Assembly: GCF_004786015.1 (NCBI RefSeq)
Contig: NZ_CP032096.1
Span: 1,054,001-1,118,000, forward strand
Direction of reading: 5' to 3'
From: Hydrogenovibrio crunogenus
GTDB taxonomy: Bacteria > Pseudomonadota > Gammaproteobacteria > Thiomicrospirales > Thiomicrospiraceae
Length of the DNA stretch: 64,000 bases
Shown: positions 9,429 through 60,711 of the stretch, piece after piece
How the letters are laid out: the number at the start of each line of letters is the position of its first letter
Numbering within the stretch: the first letter of the stretch is position 1
Position numbers and translations under genes: made by a program
Notes under the pieces: model-generated
Told to the model about the DNA's origin: nothing
Databases searched by the model: none
What the model saw: only the letters and a program-made list of their open reading frames with translations

Positions 9429-9543
9429 GTTAACAACGGGGTTGAATGCAAGGCCTCAGAGGTCAATCATAAGCGAAACATTCAGCGTGTTTTCCGTATT
9501 GCCCACCGCAATCGGTTTCTATGGGTGACTCAAAGAGTCGAGT

Positions 9544-9740
9544 TTAGGCCGGTATCCGGGCTTAAGAGCAATTTCCTGACGCCTTCTCAAGTTCTGGAAC
9601 TCAATGGCATGGAATCAGGTTTTCTCTATCACCGTTGCGGGGGCAGCACTGGAATGGACACGCAAATCAGTTTTATAACCTTTTGCGGTGGTCACCAAGT
9701 TTCCCGTTTAACATTACTTTCTAAAAGTAAAGGCACCTAA
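9544..9740 (-). ncRNA. Cobalamin (B12) riboswitch upstream of btuB
   Basis: Reading the minus strand from 9740 the conserved cobalamin aptamer parts appear in order: AGGTGCC, AACGGGAAACTTGGTG, CCAGTGCTGCCCCCGCAACGG, a variant B12 box GCCATTG, GAGAAGGCGTCAGG, and the 3' AGCCCGGATACCGGCC. These are the family's standard blocks with correct order and spacing over about 200 bases. It lies about 190 bases upstream of btuB, so it should repress btuB-btuF when cobalamin is plentiful. Confidence 0.95.
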
Positions 9741-9813
9741 AAAAAGGTATTATAATCGTTTTTAAATGAGAGGTTGCTGAATTAAATTCATTCGTTTATG
9801 AATTTAATTCATA

Positions 9814-14896: not shown

Positions 14897-14993
14897 TGCT
14901 TAGAAGTATTGAAAAAAGGCGCTTTTTTTAAAAATTACGTAAAAAAACTATTGTTTTTTTGTATCGAATCTTTTAGTATTACCTCATCTTAAT

Positions 14994-15072
14994 TTGATAA
15001 AGCTAAATTCGTCGCGAGGCGAAGACAGAAAGCCACGGATCTCTCTGAGATGGCCGGGTTACCTTTTTAACG
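14994..15072 (+). ncRNA. Cyclic-di-GMP-I (GEMM-I) riboswitch, copy 1
   Basis: The core blocks of the class I c-di-GMP aptamer are present: GCTAAATTCGTC, a GCGA tetraloop, GGCGAAGACAGAAAGCCACGG, a short P3 stem, and GATGGCCGGGTTACC. The GNRA loop and the AGCCACGG/GGCCGGGTTACC pairing blocks fit the consensus. Ten bases further on, a perfect TTAAGTG-GAAA-CACTTAA hairpin (15083-15100) may be part of the expression platform. The next ORF is the 48-residue peptide at 15173. Confidence 0.92.
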
Positions 15073-15172
15073 ACACATTTATTTAAGTGGAAACACTTAA
15101 GAACCTATCGTTATATGTTCTGTTTAGATCCTTTCTATGTGATTGGATTTCATTTAGCCTTTTAAAAAATTA

Positions 15173-15319
15173 ATGACATGGCAGTTATGCATCAAGCCGT
15201 TTATCGCTTTTTTCATTTTGCTGATGTTGTGTTGTTTTTTAACTGCATTATCTATTGATGATTTATCAAGTTATAACCTTGTTCAGAGTGCAACTAATTT
15301 TCCTCTTTCCCATTTCTGA
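15173..15319 (+). CDS. Tiny membrane peptide downstream of c-di-GMP riboswitch 1
   Basis: A 48-codon ORF starting MTWQLCIKPFIAFFILLMLC, with one hydrophobic helix (about residues 7-26) and a polar tail ending LSHF. It lies about 100 bases after the riboswitch and is closed by a strong terminator at 15352, so it forms a complete riboswitch-ORF-terminator unit. There is no clear Shine-Dalgarno and no known relative, so coding status is uncertain. Confidence 0.4.
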   Translation: MTWQLCIKPFIAFFILLMLCCFLTALSIDDLSSYNLVQSATNFPLSHF

Positions 15320-15351
15320 CGTGGGAATACCACACTAGGGGGAAAATTTTT

Positions 15352-15378
15352 GGGGGGCTTTTTTGCCCCCATTTTTTT
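15352..15378 (+). terminator. Rho-independent terminator after riboswitch-1 unit
   Basis: Stem GGGGGC/GCCCCC with a T6 loop, followed by ATTTTTTT. It ends the riboswitch 1 transcript before prfC. Confidence 0.85.
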
Positions 15379-15557: not shown

Positions 15558-17132
15558 ATGTCACTGCAATTAGAAACAAATAAAAGGCGTACTTTTGCCA
15601 TCATTTCCCACCCGGACGCCGGGAAAACCACGGTCACTGAAAAACTATTGTTATACGGTGGCGCCATCCAGATGGCTGGGGCGGTAAAAAGTCGTAAAAC
15701 AGATCGTTCGGCTACATCCGATTGGATGAAGATGGAGCAAGAAAGAGGTATTTCTGTTGCGTCCTCCGTGATGCAGTTCCCTTATAAAGATGTCATGATC
15801 AATCTTTTGGATACCCCTGGGCATGAAGACTTTTCGGAAGATACTTATCGTACTCTGACGGCTGTGGATTCCGCTTTAATGGTGATTGATGTGGCTAAAG
15901 GGGTTGAAGATCGAACCATTAAATTAATGGAAGTATGCCGCCTAAGAGACACGCCTATCTTAACGTTTATCAACAAGCTGGACCGTGAAGGAAAGGAGCC
16001 GATAGAGCTGTTGGATGAAGTGGAAGAGGTATTGAAAATCAATTGTGCCCCGATGACTTGGCCAATTGGTATGGGAAAACGTTTTAAAGGGATCTATCAT
16101 CTTTATAATGATACCGTACGTCTTTTTGAATCGGCTGATGGGTTGAATGCCTCGGAAGGGGAGTTGATTCATGGGTTGGATAATCCTGAGCTAGATGAAA
16201 AGTTAGGCAGTCTTGCAGAAGAATTACGAGATGAAATTGAACTGGTCAGAGGGGCCAGCCATGAATTCGAGTTGGATGCTTTTCTAAAAGGGAAAATGAC
16301 CCCTGTATTTTTTGGATCAGCCGTGAATAATTTCGGTTTGCAAGAGTTATTAGATGGCTTTGCAAAATATGCACCTGCGCCAGAAGGGCGTGAAGCCAGC
16401 ACGCGATTTGTTAAATCTGATGAAGAAAAATTAACCGGTTTTATTTTTAAAATCCAAGCCAACATGGACCCTAAGCATCGTGATCGCGTGGCATTTATGC
16501 GAATCGTGTCTGGTAAGTATGAAAAGGGCATGAGTTTAAAGCATGTCAGGATTGGTAAAGACGTTAAAATTGCGAAAGCAATTACATTTTTAGCAAATAA
16601 GCGCGATCAAGCAGAATTGGCCTATCCAGGTGATATTATCGGGTTGCATAACCATGGCACGATTAAAATCGGGGATACTTTCACACAAGGTGAAGACCTG
16701 AAATTTACAGGGATTCCAAACTTTGCGCCAGAATTGTTCAGGCGGGCACAGCTGAAAGATCCAATGAAAATGAAAGCATTGCAAAAAGGATTAACGCAAC
16801 TGTCAGAAGAAGGGGCAACGCAATTATTTCGTCCAATTATTAATAATGATTTGATTTTGGGTGCGGTTGGGATTCTGCAATTTGAAGTGGTGGCCCAGCG
16901 ACTAAAAGATGAGTACAACGTGACTTGTTTATTCGAACCGGTTAATGTTTCAACGGCACGTTGGGTCATTGGTGATAAAACTGAGATCGACAAGTTCTTG
17001 GCGAAAGTTAAAGAGAACGTGGCTTATGATGCTGCTGGAGAGTTGGTTTATATTGCCCCTACTCGTGTTAATTTAACACTGATTGAAGAGCGTTGGCCTG
17101 AGCTTCAGTTTGTTGCCACACGCGAACACTGA
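15558..17132 (+). CDS. prfC: Peptide chain release factor 3
   Basis: RF3 is the GTPase that releases RF1 and RF2 from the ribosome after termination. The 524-residue protein has the G1 motif SHPDAGKTT, switch [22 protein letters not shown], and the RF3-specific C-terminal domains. Length matches the family (about 525-530). An isolated gene, closed by a strong terminator. A long stretch containing a c-di-GMP riboswitch lies upstream, but a terminator and a palindrome separate that unit from prfC. Confidence 0.97.
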
Positions 17133-17190: not shown

Positions 17191-17404
17191 TCTTAAAAAT
17201 TTCATTCGATCATGTTTCAAAATTTGAATAAAGCGTGAAGACAAATCACTTTTATTTTAAATTTTATCGCTAAGCATTTGATTAAATGTTAAAAATTTTG
17301 ATTCTTTTAAAAAATATGTTATTGTTTAATAGTTAATTTTTCGTAAGATTAATAAGTTAACCTGATTTAAGTTCAGGTTTCATTAATATCAATCACCTTA
17401 TTAA

Positions 17405-17490
17405 TGTAGATTTGCCAAACTTACTGTGAAGTAAGGACGGAAAGCCACGGGTCTTTGTCATCAAATAAAGATAGCCGGGTTGCGTAGAGG
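17405..17490 (+). ncRNA. Cyclic-di-GMP-I (GEMM-I) riboswitch, copy 2
   Basis: An excellent match to the class I c-di-GMP aptamer: GCCAAACTTACT, GTGA loop, AGTAAGGACGG, AAAGCCACGGGTCTTT, then AAAGATAGCCGGGTTGC. It lies about 90 bases upstream of a 46-codon membrane-protein ORF (17582) and after the prfC terminator. A hairpin AACCTGA/TCAGGTT (17359-17379) precedes it. About 450 bases between prfC and the small ORF hold only the terminator, this RNA and its promoter region. Confidence 0.95.
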
Positions 17491-17581
17491 AAGTGACAGA
17501 ATCAAAACCATACATTTTCTGCCCCGTTTAAGGACAAATGGAGTTAATAGTTAGGTCAAAAGAAAGGTAATATAGATTGTT

Positions 17582-17722
17582 ATGAAGCTTAAAAGAAGAG
17601 AAAATATTTTTCGAACGCAAAAGAAATCTCACTTTAAAACGATTACTTTCTTTGTCGTCGCGATGATGGTACTTGTTTCTTATGTCTATTCAGTTGATCC
17701 GACTGTTATCGACATGCTGTAA
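17582..17722 (+). CDS. Tiny membrane protein downstream of c-di-GMP riboswitch 2
   Basis: A 46-codon ORF beginning MKLKRRENIFRTQKKSHF and ending SVDPTVIDML. A strongly basic N-terminus precedes one hydrophobic helix (ITFFVVAMMVLVSYVY), the layout of a small single-pass membrane protein. The riboswitch directly upstream implies that c-di-GMP controls its expression. An AAAGG lies 14-17 bases before the ATG, a distant SD. It ends 15 bases before the convergent mgtE gene. No family is recognised. Confidence 0.6.
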   Translation: MKLKRRENIFRTQKKSHFKTITFFVVAMMVLVSYVYSVDPTVIDML

Positions 17723-17737
17723 TAATAGGATATGATC

Positions 17738-19099
17738 TTAGATTGTAAATACAATCGTCGCTAATCCTAAGAAGACGAAGAAACCAAGAGAATCTGTTAC
17801 GGTCGTCAGCATTAATCCTGATGCTAAGGCAGGGTCGACTTTGATTTTGTTAAGAAACAAGGGAATTAAAGCGCCTGCAAATGCCGCTGCAACAAGGTTG
17901 ATTAGCATCGCAGCACCGAAAATAATCCCTAGCGCACTGTCTTGAAACCAAAACCAGGTGACAACACTGGTTAAGATGGCCCATAAAAGCCCATTAAAAC
18001 TTCCTACCGCCGTTTCCTTTAAAATCAGTTTATGACTATTTTTGGCACCTAGTTTTCCTGTCGCGATGGCTCGAATAACAATAGTGGCCGTTTGCGTGCC
18101 TGCTATTCCCCCCATGCTTGCGATAATTGGCATCAAAACGGCTAAAGCCACCACTTGTTCAATCGTCGCTTCAAAAAAACCGATTACAATAGATGCAAAA
18201 ATAGCGGTTAATAAATTGATCCCTAGCCAAAAAGAACGTCTTTTAGCGGAGCGAAGAGGCGGGGCAAACAAATCTTCTTCATCATCTAGACCGGCGCTGG
18301 CCATTTGAGCTCTTTCAGCTTCTTCTCGGATGATGTCGACAACATCATCAATGGTGATGCGTCCCAGTACAAAGTTATTTTCATCAACGACGGCAATCGA
18401 GATCAAGTCGTTTTTTTCAAAAATAGTGGCAACCTCTTTGTCTGGTACTAAAGCTTTAATAGCAAACCGTTTCGGGTCGACTAAGTCAGCGACAAGCGTT
18501 TCTTCATCATGCACCAGGAGCTCATTAAGCTTCAATGTCCCCTGATATTTCCCATCTCGATCTCTGACAATCAGATCAACCATGTCTTTCGGCAGAGAGC
18601 CTATTTTGCGTAGAAGACGGATGACTACTTCAAGTGTGACATCAGAGCGAACAGCGATGAAATCAGTACTCATTAATCCACCTGCAGTGTCTTCCGGATA
18701 AGATAATGCGGTTTGTACAGCACGGCGGTTTTGTTCCGGTAATTTAGCCAGTAAGCTGCTTTTTTCTTCATCTGGTAAAGATTGAATAATATCCGCGATA
18801 TCATCGGTTTCAAGCGCTTCTGTCAGTTGAATGATTTCGTGTTGATCGAGATGGCTTAATAAGTTGGCCCGAACTTCGTCATTGGTGTGCCCTAAGATTT
18901 CCCCTTGCGTATCAGAGGGGAGTAATCCCCATAATTGCGAACGTTCTTTCGGTGGTGTGGCTTCTAATATTTCGGCAACTTCTTCGGCAACAAGACCTTG
19001 TAAAAGTTGCTGAATGTAATCCGTGTTTTGTTCGCTAACGGCTTTGTGGAGTTGTTCGGTAATCTGAAGTTTGTCAATTGTATGATGAATTTGAGACAT
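17738..19099 (-). CDS. mgtE: MgtE magnesium transporter
   Basis: MgtE is a Mg2+-gated magnesium channel of the inner membrane. This 453-residue copy has the N-terminal superhelical domain (LQGLVAEEVAEILEATPPKERSQLW and repeats), a CBS pair (STDFIAVRSDVTLEVVIRLL; VPDKEVATIFEKNDLISIAVVDENNFVLGRITIDDVVD), a connecting helix, and five C-terminal helices with the pore motif PIIASMGGIAGTQ. ATG at 19097-19099 is preferred: a GAG lies eight bases upstream; alternatives are ATG at 19105 and TTG at 19117. Monocistronic. Confidence 0.93.
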   Translation of the reverse strand: MSQIHHTIDKLQITEQLHKAVSEQNTDYIQQLLQGLVAEEVAEILEATPPKERSQLWGLLPSDTQGEILGHTNDEVRANLLSHLDQHEIIQLTEALETDDIADIIQSLPDEEKSSLLAKLPEQNRRAVQTALSYPEDTAGGLMSTDFIAVRSDVTLEVVIRLLRKIGSLPKDMVDLIVRDRDGKYQGTLKLNELLVHDEETLVADLVDPKRFAIKALVPDKEVATIFEKNDLISIAVVDENNFVLGRITIDDVVDIIREEAERAQMASAGLDDEEDLFAPPLRSAKRRSFWLGINLLTAIFASIVIGFFEATIEQVVALAVLMPIIASMGGIAGTQTATIVIRAIATGKLGAKNSHKLILKETAVGSFNGLLWAILTSVVTWFWFQDSALGIIFGAAMLINLVAAAFAGALIPLFLNKIKVDPALASGLMLTTVTDSLGFFVFLGLATIVFTI

Positions 19100-19223
19100 G
19101 GGCATTTCTCGAAACAATTAGGTTGTTATGTTTTAGTCTGATTATGCCTTGAAAAGGGTGTAACGCAACTAAAATTTTACGATTTGTATTTTAACGGTCA
19201 CTCTTTTTCTTTACAGACAGACG

Positions 19224-59061: not shown

Positions 59062-60711
59062 GTGCGGAATTCTAATAAGTATTCAATTTATAAGGCTGTG
59101 TTTTATGCCAGCTTATTCATCAGTTTTATTTTTGCTAGCCAAGCTCAAGCTAAAGCTCTGAATATTGACTGGCAATTGTTTAGCCTTAATGAAGGCCAAC
59201 AATTTAAACCTGAACCCCCTGAAGCGGAAAATACTTTACAAAAACAAGATGGCATTTCTTTAGTCGGCGGCCATTATCTTTATTCTGGTGAGCTGAGAAT
59301 TGAAAAAGAGGGTTTTTATGTTGTTGACTTTAAAAACACCTCTACGATAGACCAGTTTTCTTTTTATATTTACGACCAGAATAACAAACTGGTTGATCGT
59401 GCCTCAGGCGGGATAGGTAGCAGTGAACCAAATCCATTTTTTCTCCGACATGGTCGCACATTTCATTTAAAAACGGGGCAATATACGCTTCGTGTGGAAG
59501 TGGCTTCACCTTATTTTATCGCCCAGCCTGTTCCTTATGTCAGTACGCTTGCTCATTACCAGCAGGAAATTAAGCTGGGTAATGCCATTGTATTGATTGG
59601 TATTGGTATTTTTCTTTCAATGGGCATTTATTACGGGGCGCTTTCTTTTGCGCGTTCACGTAATACAGAAATTCTGTATGCCATCTTTATCTTTTCAAAC
59701 TTGCTGTTTAATGCCGGTGCGCATTTGATTTTGTCTCAACTGTTTCATTGGCATAACTTTTATCTGACGTCTTTTCCCATTTTGATTTCTAACGTTATTT
59801 ACATACTTTTTGTGATGAAGCTTTTGGAAATTCACCCTATTAAAAACAAAAGGCTGCACACAATGGGCATCATCTCTGTGGCGTTATTGGTTTTATTTGC
59901 CTTATTTGCCATGCTGTTCCCCAATTGGATCAATGAGATGGCGCGTTATGGAGTATGGGTTTTTCTGTTATATGGGTTGGTCGCTGGGGTCACACGATCG
60001 TTGCAAGGCAGTATGGTGGCGCGTTTGTATTTGGTTGCTTTAATGAGTTTTATCGTGCTGGCGAGTATGGCCACTTTGCCAACACAATTGAGTTCAAACA
60101 CCATTTACGTTGAACATTATGGGTTGGCTGCAATCGCCATGGAGGTTATCTTGCTCGCCTTAGTGCTCACCTATCAGGTTGGAAAGTTATATCGTGAGCG
60201 TATGAAAATGCTTTTTAGTCTCGATCAAAGTAATAAGTTGGCACACACGGACGCGGTTACGCAGGTGCCGAATCGTTATGCTTTGGAAGCTGAGTTGGCT
60301 TCTTTCGAACAAGCTTCTTCTTTAACTTACATTGATATGGATAACTTAAAACTGTACAACGACCGCTTTGGACATGCAAAAGGCGATGAGTTATTGAAAA
60401 TGTTTGCCGCTTTAATGAAAAAAGGCCTAGGCGAGAAAGGAAAGATTTATCGAGTGGGAGGGGATGAGTTTGCGGTAATCAGTCAAGATGGCGATACAAA
60501 TAGAGTGCAGACAGTGATAGAAAGCGTGGTTGAGAAGATGCAGCAAATCGGATTCGAGCATGCCGGGGTGAGTGCGGGTGTGGCCTTTATGTATGAGGTG
60601 GCGAATACTTCAGAACTGAAGCATCTAGCTGACATGCGAATGTACGAAAATAAACAACAGCGAAAAAAGCAAAGTTTTCAGCAAAAAGTCAGTGATTCCT
60701 CTTTCATCTAA
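59062..60711 (+). CDS. 7TMR-DISM diguanylate cyclase
   Basis: A 549-residue enzyme: signal peptide (about 1-30), periplasmic 7TMR-DISM sensor domain (about 33-160), seven helices (about 175-375), and a C-terminal GGDEF domain with an intact catalytic GGDEF at residues 466-470 (RVGGDEFAVIS). No RxxD inhibitory site is visible upstream of it. It should make c-di-GMP, the ligand of the two riboswitches in this window. GTG start with AAGAG upstream. Confidence 0.93.
   Translation: MRNSNKYSIYKAVFYASLFISFIFASQAQAKALNIDWQLFSLNEGQQFKPEPPEAENTLQKQDGISLVGGHYLYSGELRIEKEGFYVVDFKNTSTIDQFSFYIYDQNNKLVDRASGGIGSSEPNPFFLRHGRTFHLKTGQYTLRVEVASPYFIAQPVPYVSTLAHYQQEIKLGNAIVLIGIGIFLSMGIYYGALSFARSRNTEILYAIFIFSNLLFNAGAHLILSQLFHWHNFYLTSFPILISNVIYILFVMKLLEIHPIKNKRLHTMGIISVALLVLFALFAMLFPNWINEMARYGVWVFLLYGLVAGVTRSLQGSMVARLYLVALMSFIVLASMATLPTQLSSNTIYVEHYGLAAIAMEVILLALVLTYQVGKLYRERMKMLFSLDQSNKLAHTDAVTQVPNRYALEAELASFEQASSLTYIDMDNLKLYNDRFGHAKGDELLKMFAALMKKGLGEKGKIYRVGGDEFAVISQDGDTNRVQTVIESVVEKMQQIGFEHAGVSAGVAFMYEVANTSELKHLADMRMYENKQQRKKQSFQQKVSDSSFI

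What the first reader, a model, noticed from the sequence alone, without database searches (positions are those of the whole stretch)
17405..17722. c-di-GMP riboswitch controlling a 46-residue membrane protein
A near-perfect GEMM-I aptamer lies ahead of an ORF with a basic N-terminus and one helix. It is too short for routine gene callers, so the target may be unannotated. The linked diguanylate cyclase at 59062 in the same window shows that the ligand pathway is present.
Basis: partly seen in the sequence, partly recalled or inferred. Interest (0 to 1): 0.65.

Follow-up and report, generated by a model that had tools for sequence, protein, structure and literature searches.

The report
c-di-GMP riboswitch before small protein
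A standard c-di-GMP-sensing RNA switch sits in front of a real but unclassified 46-residue membrane protein, found so far in only one genus of sulfur bacteria, and a second copy of the switch nearby leads an RNA that seems to encode no protein.

Summary
Confirmed. A canonical c-di-GMP-I (GEMM-I) aptamer lies at 17404-17487 (RF01051, 60.5 bits, E 2.3e-9). The 46-aa frame at 17582-17722 is a real gene: its family occurs in 10 of 11 Hydrogenovibrio genomes searched, each time between prfC and a convergent mgtE, with a clear excess of synonymous change. It has a basic N-terminus and one hydrophobic helix. Outside the genus it was not found in 51 other genomes of the order; a sample of 368 others of the class gave three weak hits inside long frames. 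The aptamer sits directly ahead of the gene in 6 of the 10; in 4 the gene has a short leader without one. Control of the small protein by c-di-GMP is well supported but not shown. The direction is open; folding leans very weakly to OFF. The cyclase at 59062 adds little, since the genome has 42 GGDEF matches. The aptamers led to a second unit 2.4 kb upstream: aptamer (14993-15067), a linker without a conserved frame, a conserved structured block and a terminator. It occurs in 7 genomes, recalls Bdellovibrio merRNA, and is the more unusual part. All 10 genus genomes with a GEMM-I match have one or both units at prfC.

The parts
17298..17325 (+). candidate promoter of the small-protein unit: TTGATT, 16 nt, TATTGT, with TG ahead of the -10
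   Evidence: own scan, 8 of 12 matches; similar sites at like places in G010, G005, G007 and G006, so 5 of 10 genomes. Below the threshold of the scan.
17404..17487 (+). c-di-GMP-I (GEMM-I) riboswitch aptamer, unit B
   Evidence: RF01051 60.5 bits, gathering 35, E 2.3e-9; residues at the places of Vc2 G20, A47, C92 are G, A, C by eye on that alignment
17488..17581 (+). leader / expression platform: competing pairings with the aptamer, no intrinsic terminator found, AAAGG 14 nt ahead of the ATG
17582..17722 (+). 46-aa small membrane protein (basic N-terminus, one hydrophobic helix)
   Evidence: family in 10 of 11 genus genomes; purifying selection; no convincing Pfam or NCBIfam match; hydropathy; single-sequence model helix 3-38, mean pLDDT 81
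17738..19117 (-). mgtE (divalent cation transporter), convergent, 15 nt from the small gene
   Evidence: PF01769 and PF03448; 3' ends -4 to +84 nt apart in 10 of 10 genomes
15558..17132 (+). prfC (release factor RF3), the gene between the two riboswitch units
   Evidence: PF16658 and PF00009
17154..17186 (+). terminator-like hairpin after prfC, ahead of unit B
   Evidence: 1 found in 2 kb, 1.4 expected in shuffles
14993..15067 (+). second c-di-GMP-I aptamer, unit A
   Evidence: RF03167 59.3 bits (gathering 59); RF01051 57.7 bits (gathering 35)
15274..15350 (+). conserved structured block of unit A (invariant TTCAGAGTGCAAC, covarying stem, pseudoknot-compatible pairs)
   Evidence: found once in each of the 7 genus genomes that carry aptamer A (exact pattern; model R1 at E 4e-17 or less); elsewhere in the 60 genomes no exact match and only three model matches at E 0.03-0.05
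15353..15370 (+). intrinsic terminator of unit A (GGGGGC loop GCCCCC, then T-run)
   Evidence: 1 found, 0.3 expected; also at the end of the block in L058, L063 and L060

Best explanation
Window 17298-17722 is a short transcription unit of Hydrogenovibrio: a promoter, a canonical c-di-GMP-I riboswitch in the 5' leader, and a 46-aa single-helix membrane protein with its basic N-terminus in the cytoplasm. c-di-GMP binding locks the aptamer's 3' strand (GCCGGGUUGC), which otherwise can pair with the leader, and thereby changes translation (or Rho termination or stability) of the small gene's RNA. Shown: aptamer, gene, conserved synteny, selection on the protein. Inferred: the promoter, ligand binding, control of the gene, membrane location. 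Weakly inferred: that binding turns the gene OFF at translation initiation (I put OFF at about 0.55). The likely job of the protein, by analogy only, is to bind and modulate a larger membrane protein when c-di-GMP signals a change between motile and attached life.
For: Aptamer score and placement. Frame conserved in 10 of 11 genus genomes with few nonsynonymous changes. Aptamer directly ahead of the frame in 6 of 10. The one genus genome without the frame, G009, is also the only one without an RF01051 match at E 0.1 or better. No intrinsic terminator between aptamer and ATG in the window. With the aptamer masked, the region from -22 to +3 was less accessible in 5 of 6 leaders and equal in 1: 0.47/0.45, 0.60/0.42, 0.48/0.37, 0.58/0.57, 0.58/0.58, 0.53/0.48 free/locked. 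One hydrophobic stretch with +6 or +7 on its N side in 10 of 10. The genome holds many c-di-GMP enzymes: 42 GGDEF matches.
Against: In 4 of 10 genomes the gene has no aptamer of its own, so control by c-di-GMP is not essential to the gene. Three of the six accessibility differences are 0.02 or less, so the direction is nearly open. The leader does not fold better than shuffles (z -1.32 with aptamer, 19 of 200 shuffles as good; z +0.43 without it, 130 of 200). In G003 a weak terminator-like hairpin lies inside the leader, so transcriptional control is possible there. The promoter was found by scan in only 5 of 10 genomes. The AAAGG in G000 is 14 nt from the ATG, an unusual spacing. No transcript data.
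Confidence: 0.75

Rival explanations
1. The riboswitch's important output is antisense RNA against the 3' end of mgtE: the transcript runs on past the small gene into the convergent magnesium-transporter gene.
For: 3' ends of the two genes lie -4 to +84 nt apart in 10 of 10 genomes. On the small gene's strand no terminator-like site was listed from its end through about the next 1 kb in the window, L006, L008, L011 or L012 (5 of 10 genomes scanned).
Against: The protein itself is under purifying selection, which an antisense role does not explain. mgtE follows the small gene also in the 4 genomes without the aptamer. Rho could end transcription unseen.
Confidence: 0.12
2. The small gene is independent of c-di-GMP in substance: the aptamer is a lineage-specific addition to a gene whose main control is its promoter.
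For: 4 of 10 genomes have the gene 105-175 nt after prfC and no aptamer there.
Against: Where present (6 of 10) the aptamer is more conserved than the flanks, so it is selected. The B-only genomes are one branch (94/97), but G000, G005 and G010 lie outside it, so it is not one recent insertion by that tree, whose deep forks are weak.
Confidence: 0.2
3. The frame is a chance ORF and the aptamer RNA acts by itself.
For: One search shows many frames of similar size by chance.
Against: Conservation and synonymous bias; the frame is kept where the aptamer is absent.
Confidence: 0.02
4. As in the best explanation, but c-di-GMP turns the small gene ON, as reported for the Vc1 riboswitch of Vibrio cholerae.
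For: PMC4744006 (passages seen) reports lower Vc1-dependent expression when c-di-GMP falls, with no apparent terminator or anti-Shine-Dalgarno sequence.
Against: The weak folding trend points the other way in 5 of 6 leaders, with 1 equal.
Confidence: 0.4

Closest known systems
c-di-GMP-I (GEMM-I) riboswitches, Vc1 and Vc2 of Vibrio cholerae
   Same: Same aptamer family; equivalents of ligand-contact residues G20, A47 and C92 kept (by eye); 5' leader of a gene; no obvious terminator or anti-SD reported for Vc1 (PMC4744006, passages)
   Different: Targets there are gbpA and VC1722; here an unclassified 46-aa membrane protein
merRNA of Bdellovibrio bacteriovorus (compared with unit A)
   Same: A c-di-GMP riboswitch inside a noncoding RNA without a conserved downstream frame (445 nt there; about 260-415 nt here)
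   Different: merRNA is massively expressed, its authors saw no conservation outside Bdellovibrio, and they propose a ligand store (PMC3627812, passages). Unit A has a conserved 3' structured block across 7 Hydrogenovibrio genomes; expression unknown; the two sequences were not compared
EutX / Rli55 riboswitch-controlled sRNAs
   Same: A riboswitch controls an RNA that acts without being translated
   Different: B12 aptamer and EutV-binding decoy there (PMC7602753, passages); I did not search unit A for such an element
Small bitopic membrane proteins such as MgtS, AcrZ, KdpF, CydX (recalled)
   Same: Size and a single helix (recalled for them)
   Different: No convincing family match; partner unknown

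Membership tests
c-di-GMP-I riboswitch (RF01051) | Matches the covariance model over its full length above the gathering score | tested here: met
   60.5 bits vs 35, positions 1-87 of 87
c-di-GMP-I riboswitch (RF01051) | Ligand-contact residues equivalent to Vc2 G20, A47, C92 | tested here: met
   By eye on the alignment: G, A, C. Contact residues from PMC4744006 (passages); placing them on the model partly rests on recall of the Vc2 sequence
c-di-GMP-I riboswitch (RF01051) | Lies in the 5' leader of a gene it controls | tested here: inconclusive
   Placement met in 6 of 10 genomes with the gene; control not testable
c-di-GMP-I riboswitch (RF01051) | Binds c-di-GMP | not testable with these tools
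   needs in-line probing
c-di-GMP-I-GGC variant (RF03167), for unit A | Model match; variant residue at the place of A47 (recalled) | tested here: inconclusive
   59.3 bits against a cut-off of 59, but A, not G, at that place by eye; RF01051 57.7 bits against 35
Riboswitch-led noncoding RNA (merRNA-like), for unit A | No conserved reading frame between aptamer and terminator | tested here: met
   7 genomes: frames of 12 aa or more in the linker share no start or length beyond the close pair G010/G005 (G005's linker was cut short). Frames that cross the block look alike because the DNA does, but the block aligns with gaps of 1 and 2 nt, which no frame survives
Riboswitch-led noncoding RNA (merRNA-like), for unit A | Is transcribed as a separate RNA, very abundant | not testable with these tools
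   terminator seen in 4 of 4 genomes scanned; a promoter-like site ahead of the aptamer in only 1 of these 4 (L060); no RNA data
Known small-protein families in Pfam / NCBIfam | Match above curated cut-off | tested here: not met
   9 members of A1 scanned (G002's copy not among them); best Pfam E 0.0046 (SPT_ssu-like, 2 members) and 0.0072 (DUF4044, 16.2 bits, cut-off 21.8); best NCBIfam E 0.12. Cut-offs are printed for member 1 only

The most novel reading that the evidence does not exclude
The prfC locus of Hydrogenovibrio is a two-output c-di-GMP switchboard: one c-di-GMP-I riboswitch gates a small membrane protein, the other gates a trans-acting noncoding RNA whose conserved, pseudoknotted 3' block is its functional part. 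Species carry the protein switch, the RNA switch, or both. A c-di-GMP riboswitch that controls a regulatory RNA conserved across a genus would go beyond merRNA.
Probability: 0.3. Interest if true: 0.7.

Novelty: new member of a known kind. Interest (0 to 1): 0.5.

Why it matters
It adds a new, nearly genus-wide small membrane protein to the likely outputs of c-di-GMP signalling, in sulfur-oxidising bacteria for which I found no report of c-di-GMP riboswitches (no paper in the held library holds the terms c-di-GMP, riboswitch and Hydrogenovibrio together). The neighbouring unit gives another candidate for a c-di-GMP riboswitch that leads an RNA rather than a gene, this time conserved in seven genomes, so its function can be tested comparatively.

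Tried and rejected
Frame 15173-15319 (48 aa) after the upstream aptamer looked like a twin of the finding. Rejected: its matches in G005 and G010 cover only residues 26-48, which lie in the conserved RNA block; the frame is not kept in the other genomes, and the block aligns with gaps of 1 and 2 nt.

Trans-pairing of unit A's conserved 5' arm with the small gene's leader: RNAduplex energies were no better than shuffles (72 to 297 of 300 shuffles as low, 7 genomes, mononucleotide shuffles). No support. In the same call the G005 linker length (104) is wrong, because the motif hit a second place; one search gives 223.

Rfam for unit A's block: best non-aptamer match is the ylbH leader on the other strand, 28.2 bits against a cut-off of 50, E 5.6e-4: rejected as below cut-off and on the wrong strand. 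Three matches of my RNA model in another genus (E 0.03-0.05) were taken as chance; the exact core pattern found none there.

Class-wide matches of the protein profile in G133, G294 and G359 (E 4e-4 to 9e-4) lie inside frames of 231-661 aa: taken as chance. The weak matches of the 48-aa frame in L015 and L018 contain stops: dropped.

prfC neighbourhood outside the genus and in G009: 10 loci taken, prfC end located by motif in 6; none of the 6 showed the MgtE motif within 1,497 nt downstream (a motif search, not an alignment); 4 loci (G025, G047, G052, G055) were not read because the motif failed.

Promoter ahead of the small gene: my scan found a site at a like place in 5 of 10 genomes (G000, G010, G005, G007, G006), none in G001 and G004, and unrelated ones in G003, G008 and G002. 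An earlier count said 'in all'; that was by eye and is withdrawn. Unit A: promoter-like sites on the + strand were listed in none of the window stretch, L058 and L063, and in L060 both ahead of the aptamer and ahead of prfC; that A is a unit of its own rests on the terminator.

Pair count with a 111-character structure was rejected for length and repeated correctly. Structure model of the ORF from one sequence only; no fold search was run, as one helix would match anything.

Whether the frame is annotated in public records was not testable here.

Full report
THE OBSERVATION. Rfam finds three RNA families above threshold in the window: a cobalamin riboswitch at 9530-9755 (-), a c-di-GMP-I aptamer at 17404-17487 (+; 60.5 bits, gathering 35, E 2.3e-9) and a c-di-GMP-I-type aptamer at 14993-15067 (+). 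The whole genome, one contig of 2.45 Mb, has four RF01051 matches: these two and a tandem pair at 326235 and 326412.

ORGANISM. Four loci that encode the protein come from named records: Hydrogenovibrio halophilus DSM 15072, Hydrogenovibrio sp. SC-1, Thiomicrospira sp. WB1 and a Piscirickettsiaceae MAG. Their contig lengths equal those of contigs of G001, G007, G004 and G006, which the tools place in the window's genus, so I call the genus Hydrogenovibrio.

THE FRAME IS A GENE. The single sequence found a match in 9 of 11 genus genomes at E 0.1 or better, itself included, two of them only at E 0.04-0.05; the profile built from those found 10 of 11, the weakest at E 4e-17 (nine of the ten are rows of the profile, G002 is not). 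The miss is G009. Outside the genus the profile found none in 51 further genomes of the order and, in a sample of 368 other genomes of the class, three matches at E 4e-4 to 9e-4 inside long frames, which I take as chance. Nine positions are invariant in the nine rows of A1: M1, K4, R5, I9, F10, R11, K14, K15, Y34. Synonymous changes dominate or are in excess: dN/dS pairs 0.04/0.70 (G010/G005), 0.03/0.31 (G003/G008), 0.05/saturated (G001/G004), 0.21/saturated (G006/G007), 0.11/1.42 (G003/G002), 0.21/1.30 and 0.22/2.08 (G000 against G010 and G005); binomial tests for the first four pairs give P of 1.1e-6, 3.9e-4, 7.8e-12 and 1.6e-6. The protein has net charge +6 or +7, then one hydrophobic stretch, then a short tail, in 10 of 10; a single-sequence model is one long helix, residues 3-38, mean pLDDT 81. 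No Pfam or NCBIfam family is convincing.

SYNTENY. The gene lies between prfC and a convergent mgtE, with 3' ends -4 to +84 nt from mgtE in 10 of 10 genomes. In six genomes without the gene whose prfC 3' side could be read (G009 and five of other genera), the MgtE motif was not found within 1.5 kb downstream of prfC.

TWO APTAMERS, TWO UNITS. RF01051 matches 10 of 11 genus genomes, the same 10 that have the gene. Unit B (aptamer between prfC and the small gene) is in G000, G002, G003, G005, G008 and G010. Unit A (aptamer ahead of prfC) is in G000, G001, G004, G005, G006, G007 and G010. Three genomes have both, four A only, three B only. On a prfC tree B-only is one branch (94/97) and A-only needs two changes, but deep forks are weak. 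In the order 27 of 62 genomes have RF01051 matches; in the 19 loci outside the genus that I looked at, the frames that follow are of other kinds, many with signal-peptide-like starts (by eye).

UNIT A LOOKS NONCODING. From aptamer to T-run it spans about 260-415 nt. The aptamer is nearly invariant, the linker varies from 102 to 260 nt and holds no frame with a shared start and length beyond the close pair G010/G005. Then comes a block with invariant TTCAGAGTGCAAC, aligned with gaps of 1 and 2 nt that would break any frame. Its structure: a stem with changes on both sides (helix 28-34/64-70: 3 of 7 pairs) and two helices of pseudoknot type (10-14/42-46, 15-17/60-62) that pair in all sequences but hardly vary, so they are compatible, not proven. 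Controls point both ways: 16 two-sided cells against a shuffled mean of 6.0 and 0 of 500 shuffles as high, but the count of further pair types is not above shuffles (15 against 16.5, 456 of 500 as high), RNAalifold's covariation term is slightly unfavourable (+0.45 kcal/mol), the structure was partly derived from this alignment, and it has only 6 distinct rows. An intrinsic terminator follows in the four genomes scanned; a promoter-like site ahead of the aptamer was listed in only one of them. An exact pattern and a covariance model both find the block in the seven genomes with aptamer A; among the other 53 of the 60 genomes scanned the pattern finds none and the model three at E 0.03-0.05. 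Rfam has no match over a cut-off.

HOW UNIT B MAY WORK. No terminator-like site lies between aptamer and ATG in the window. The aptamer's 3' half can pair with the leader in the free fold, strongly in G002, G003 and G008 (by eye). Masking the aptamer made the start region less accessible in 5 of 6 leaders and equal in 1, but by 0.02 or less in three: a very weak hint at OFF. The leader as a whole does not fold better than shuffles. A weak terminator-like hairpin in G003's leader leaves transcriptional control open there. For Vc1 of V. cholerae, the closest studied case I read, neither terminator nor anti-SD is apparent and the switch is ON (PMC4744006, passages).

THE LIGAND. By eye on the alignment both aptamers keep the equivalents of G20, A47 and C92, so c-di-GMP rather than a variant ligand is expected; unit A's RF03167 label is marginal (59.3 against 59). 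GGDEF domains: 42 matches in this genome, 28-59 in the genus, G009 lowest with 28. The cyclase at 59062 is one of many.

LITERATURE. Ten searches. I saw in the listings (titles and starts of abstracts, capped) no paper on this protein or on a c-di-GMP riboswitch at prfC; this is not proof of absence. merRNA: PMC3627812, passages. EutX/Rli55: PMC7602753, passages. Vc1: PMC4744006, passages. No paper was read whole.

VERDICT. The finding is right in substance: a canonical riboswitch ahead of a real, so far genus-restricted small membrane protein. It is a new target of a known riboswitch class. Unit A is the part a specialist would find more surprising.

Noticed in passing
14993-15378 (+): Second c-di-GMP-I aptamer leading a terminator-bounded RNA with a conserved structured block and no conserved frame; 7 of 11 genus genomes.
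   Followed up: yes
2194, 10378, 15493, 37662, 42336, 50118, 55268, 60728, 62040: Palindrome CCAGGCCTGG, often inside A-run/T-run hairpins; 8 of 9 window sites lie outside frames of 150 aa or more, the ninth (2194) in a ComEC-like competence gene (PF03772). ACCAGGCCTGG has 8 matches in the window, 0.01 expected. 367-677 copies in 7 of 11 genus genomes and 0, 0, 0 and 1 in G002, G008, G009, G003, backwards control 0-2. The seven are the same seven that carry unit A. Candidate terminator-borne uptake sequence.
   Followed up: partly
L001:1501-1756 (G000:C1:326235-326490): Tandem c-di-GMP-I aptamers ahead of a 179-aa frame; paired aptamers in another genus (L042, L044) precede frames with a similar ...PDALA start.
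   Followed up: no
9530-9755 (-): Cobalamin riboswitch (88.6 bits) ahead of a 614-aa frame that looks like a TonB-dependent receptor and a 288-aa binding-protein-like frame (by eye).
   Followed up: no
L035:1501-1583 and L036:1501-1583: Weak, below cut-off RF01051 matches in G008 and G010 (22-23 bits), possibly degenerate aptamers.
   Followed up: no
15173-15319 (+): 48-aa hydrophobic frame that mimics a riboswitch target but is not conserved; its similarity to G005 and G010 comes from the RNA block.
   Followed up: yes
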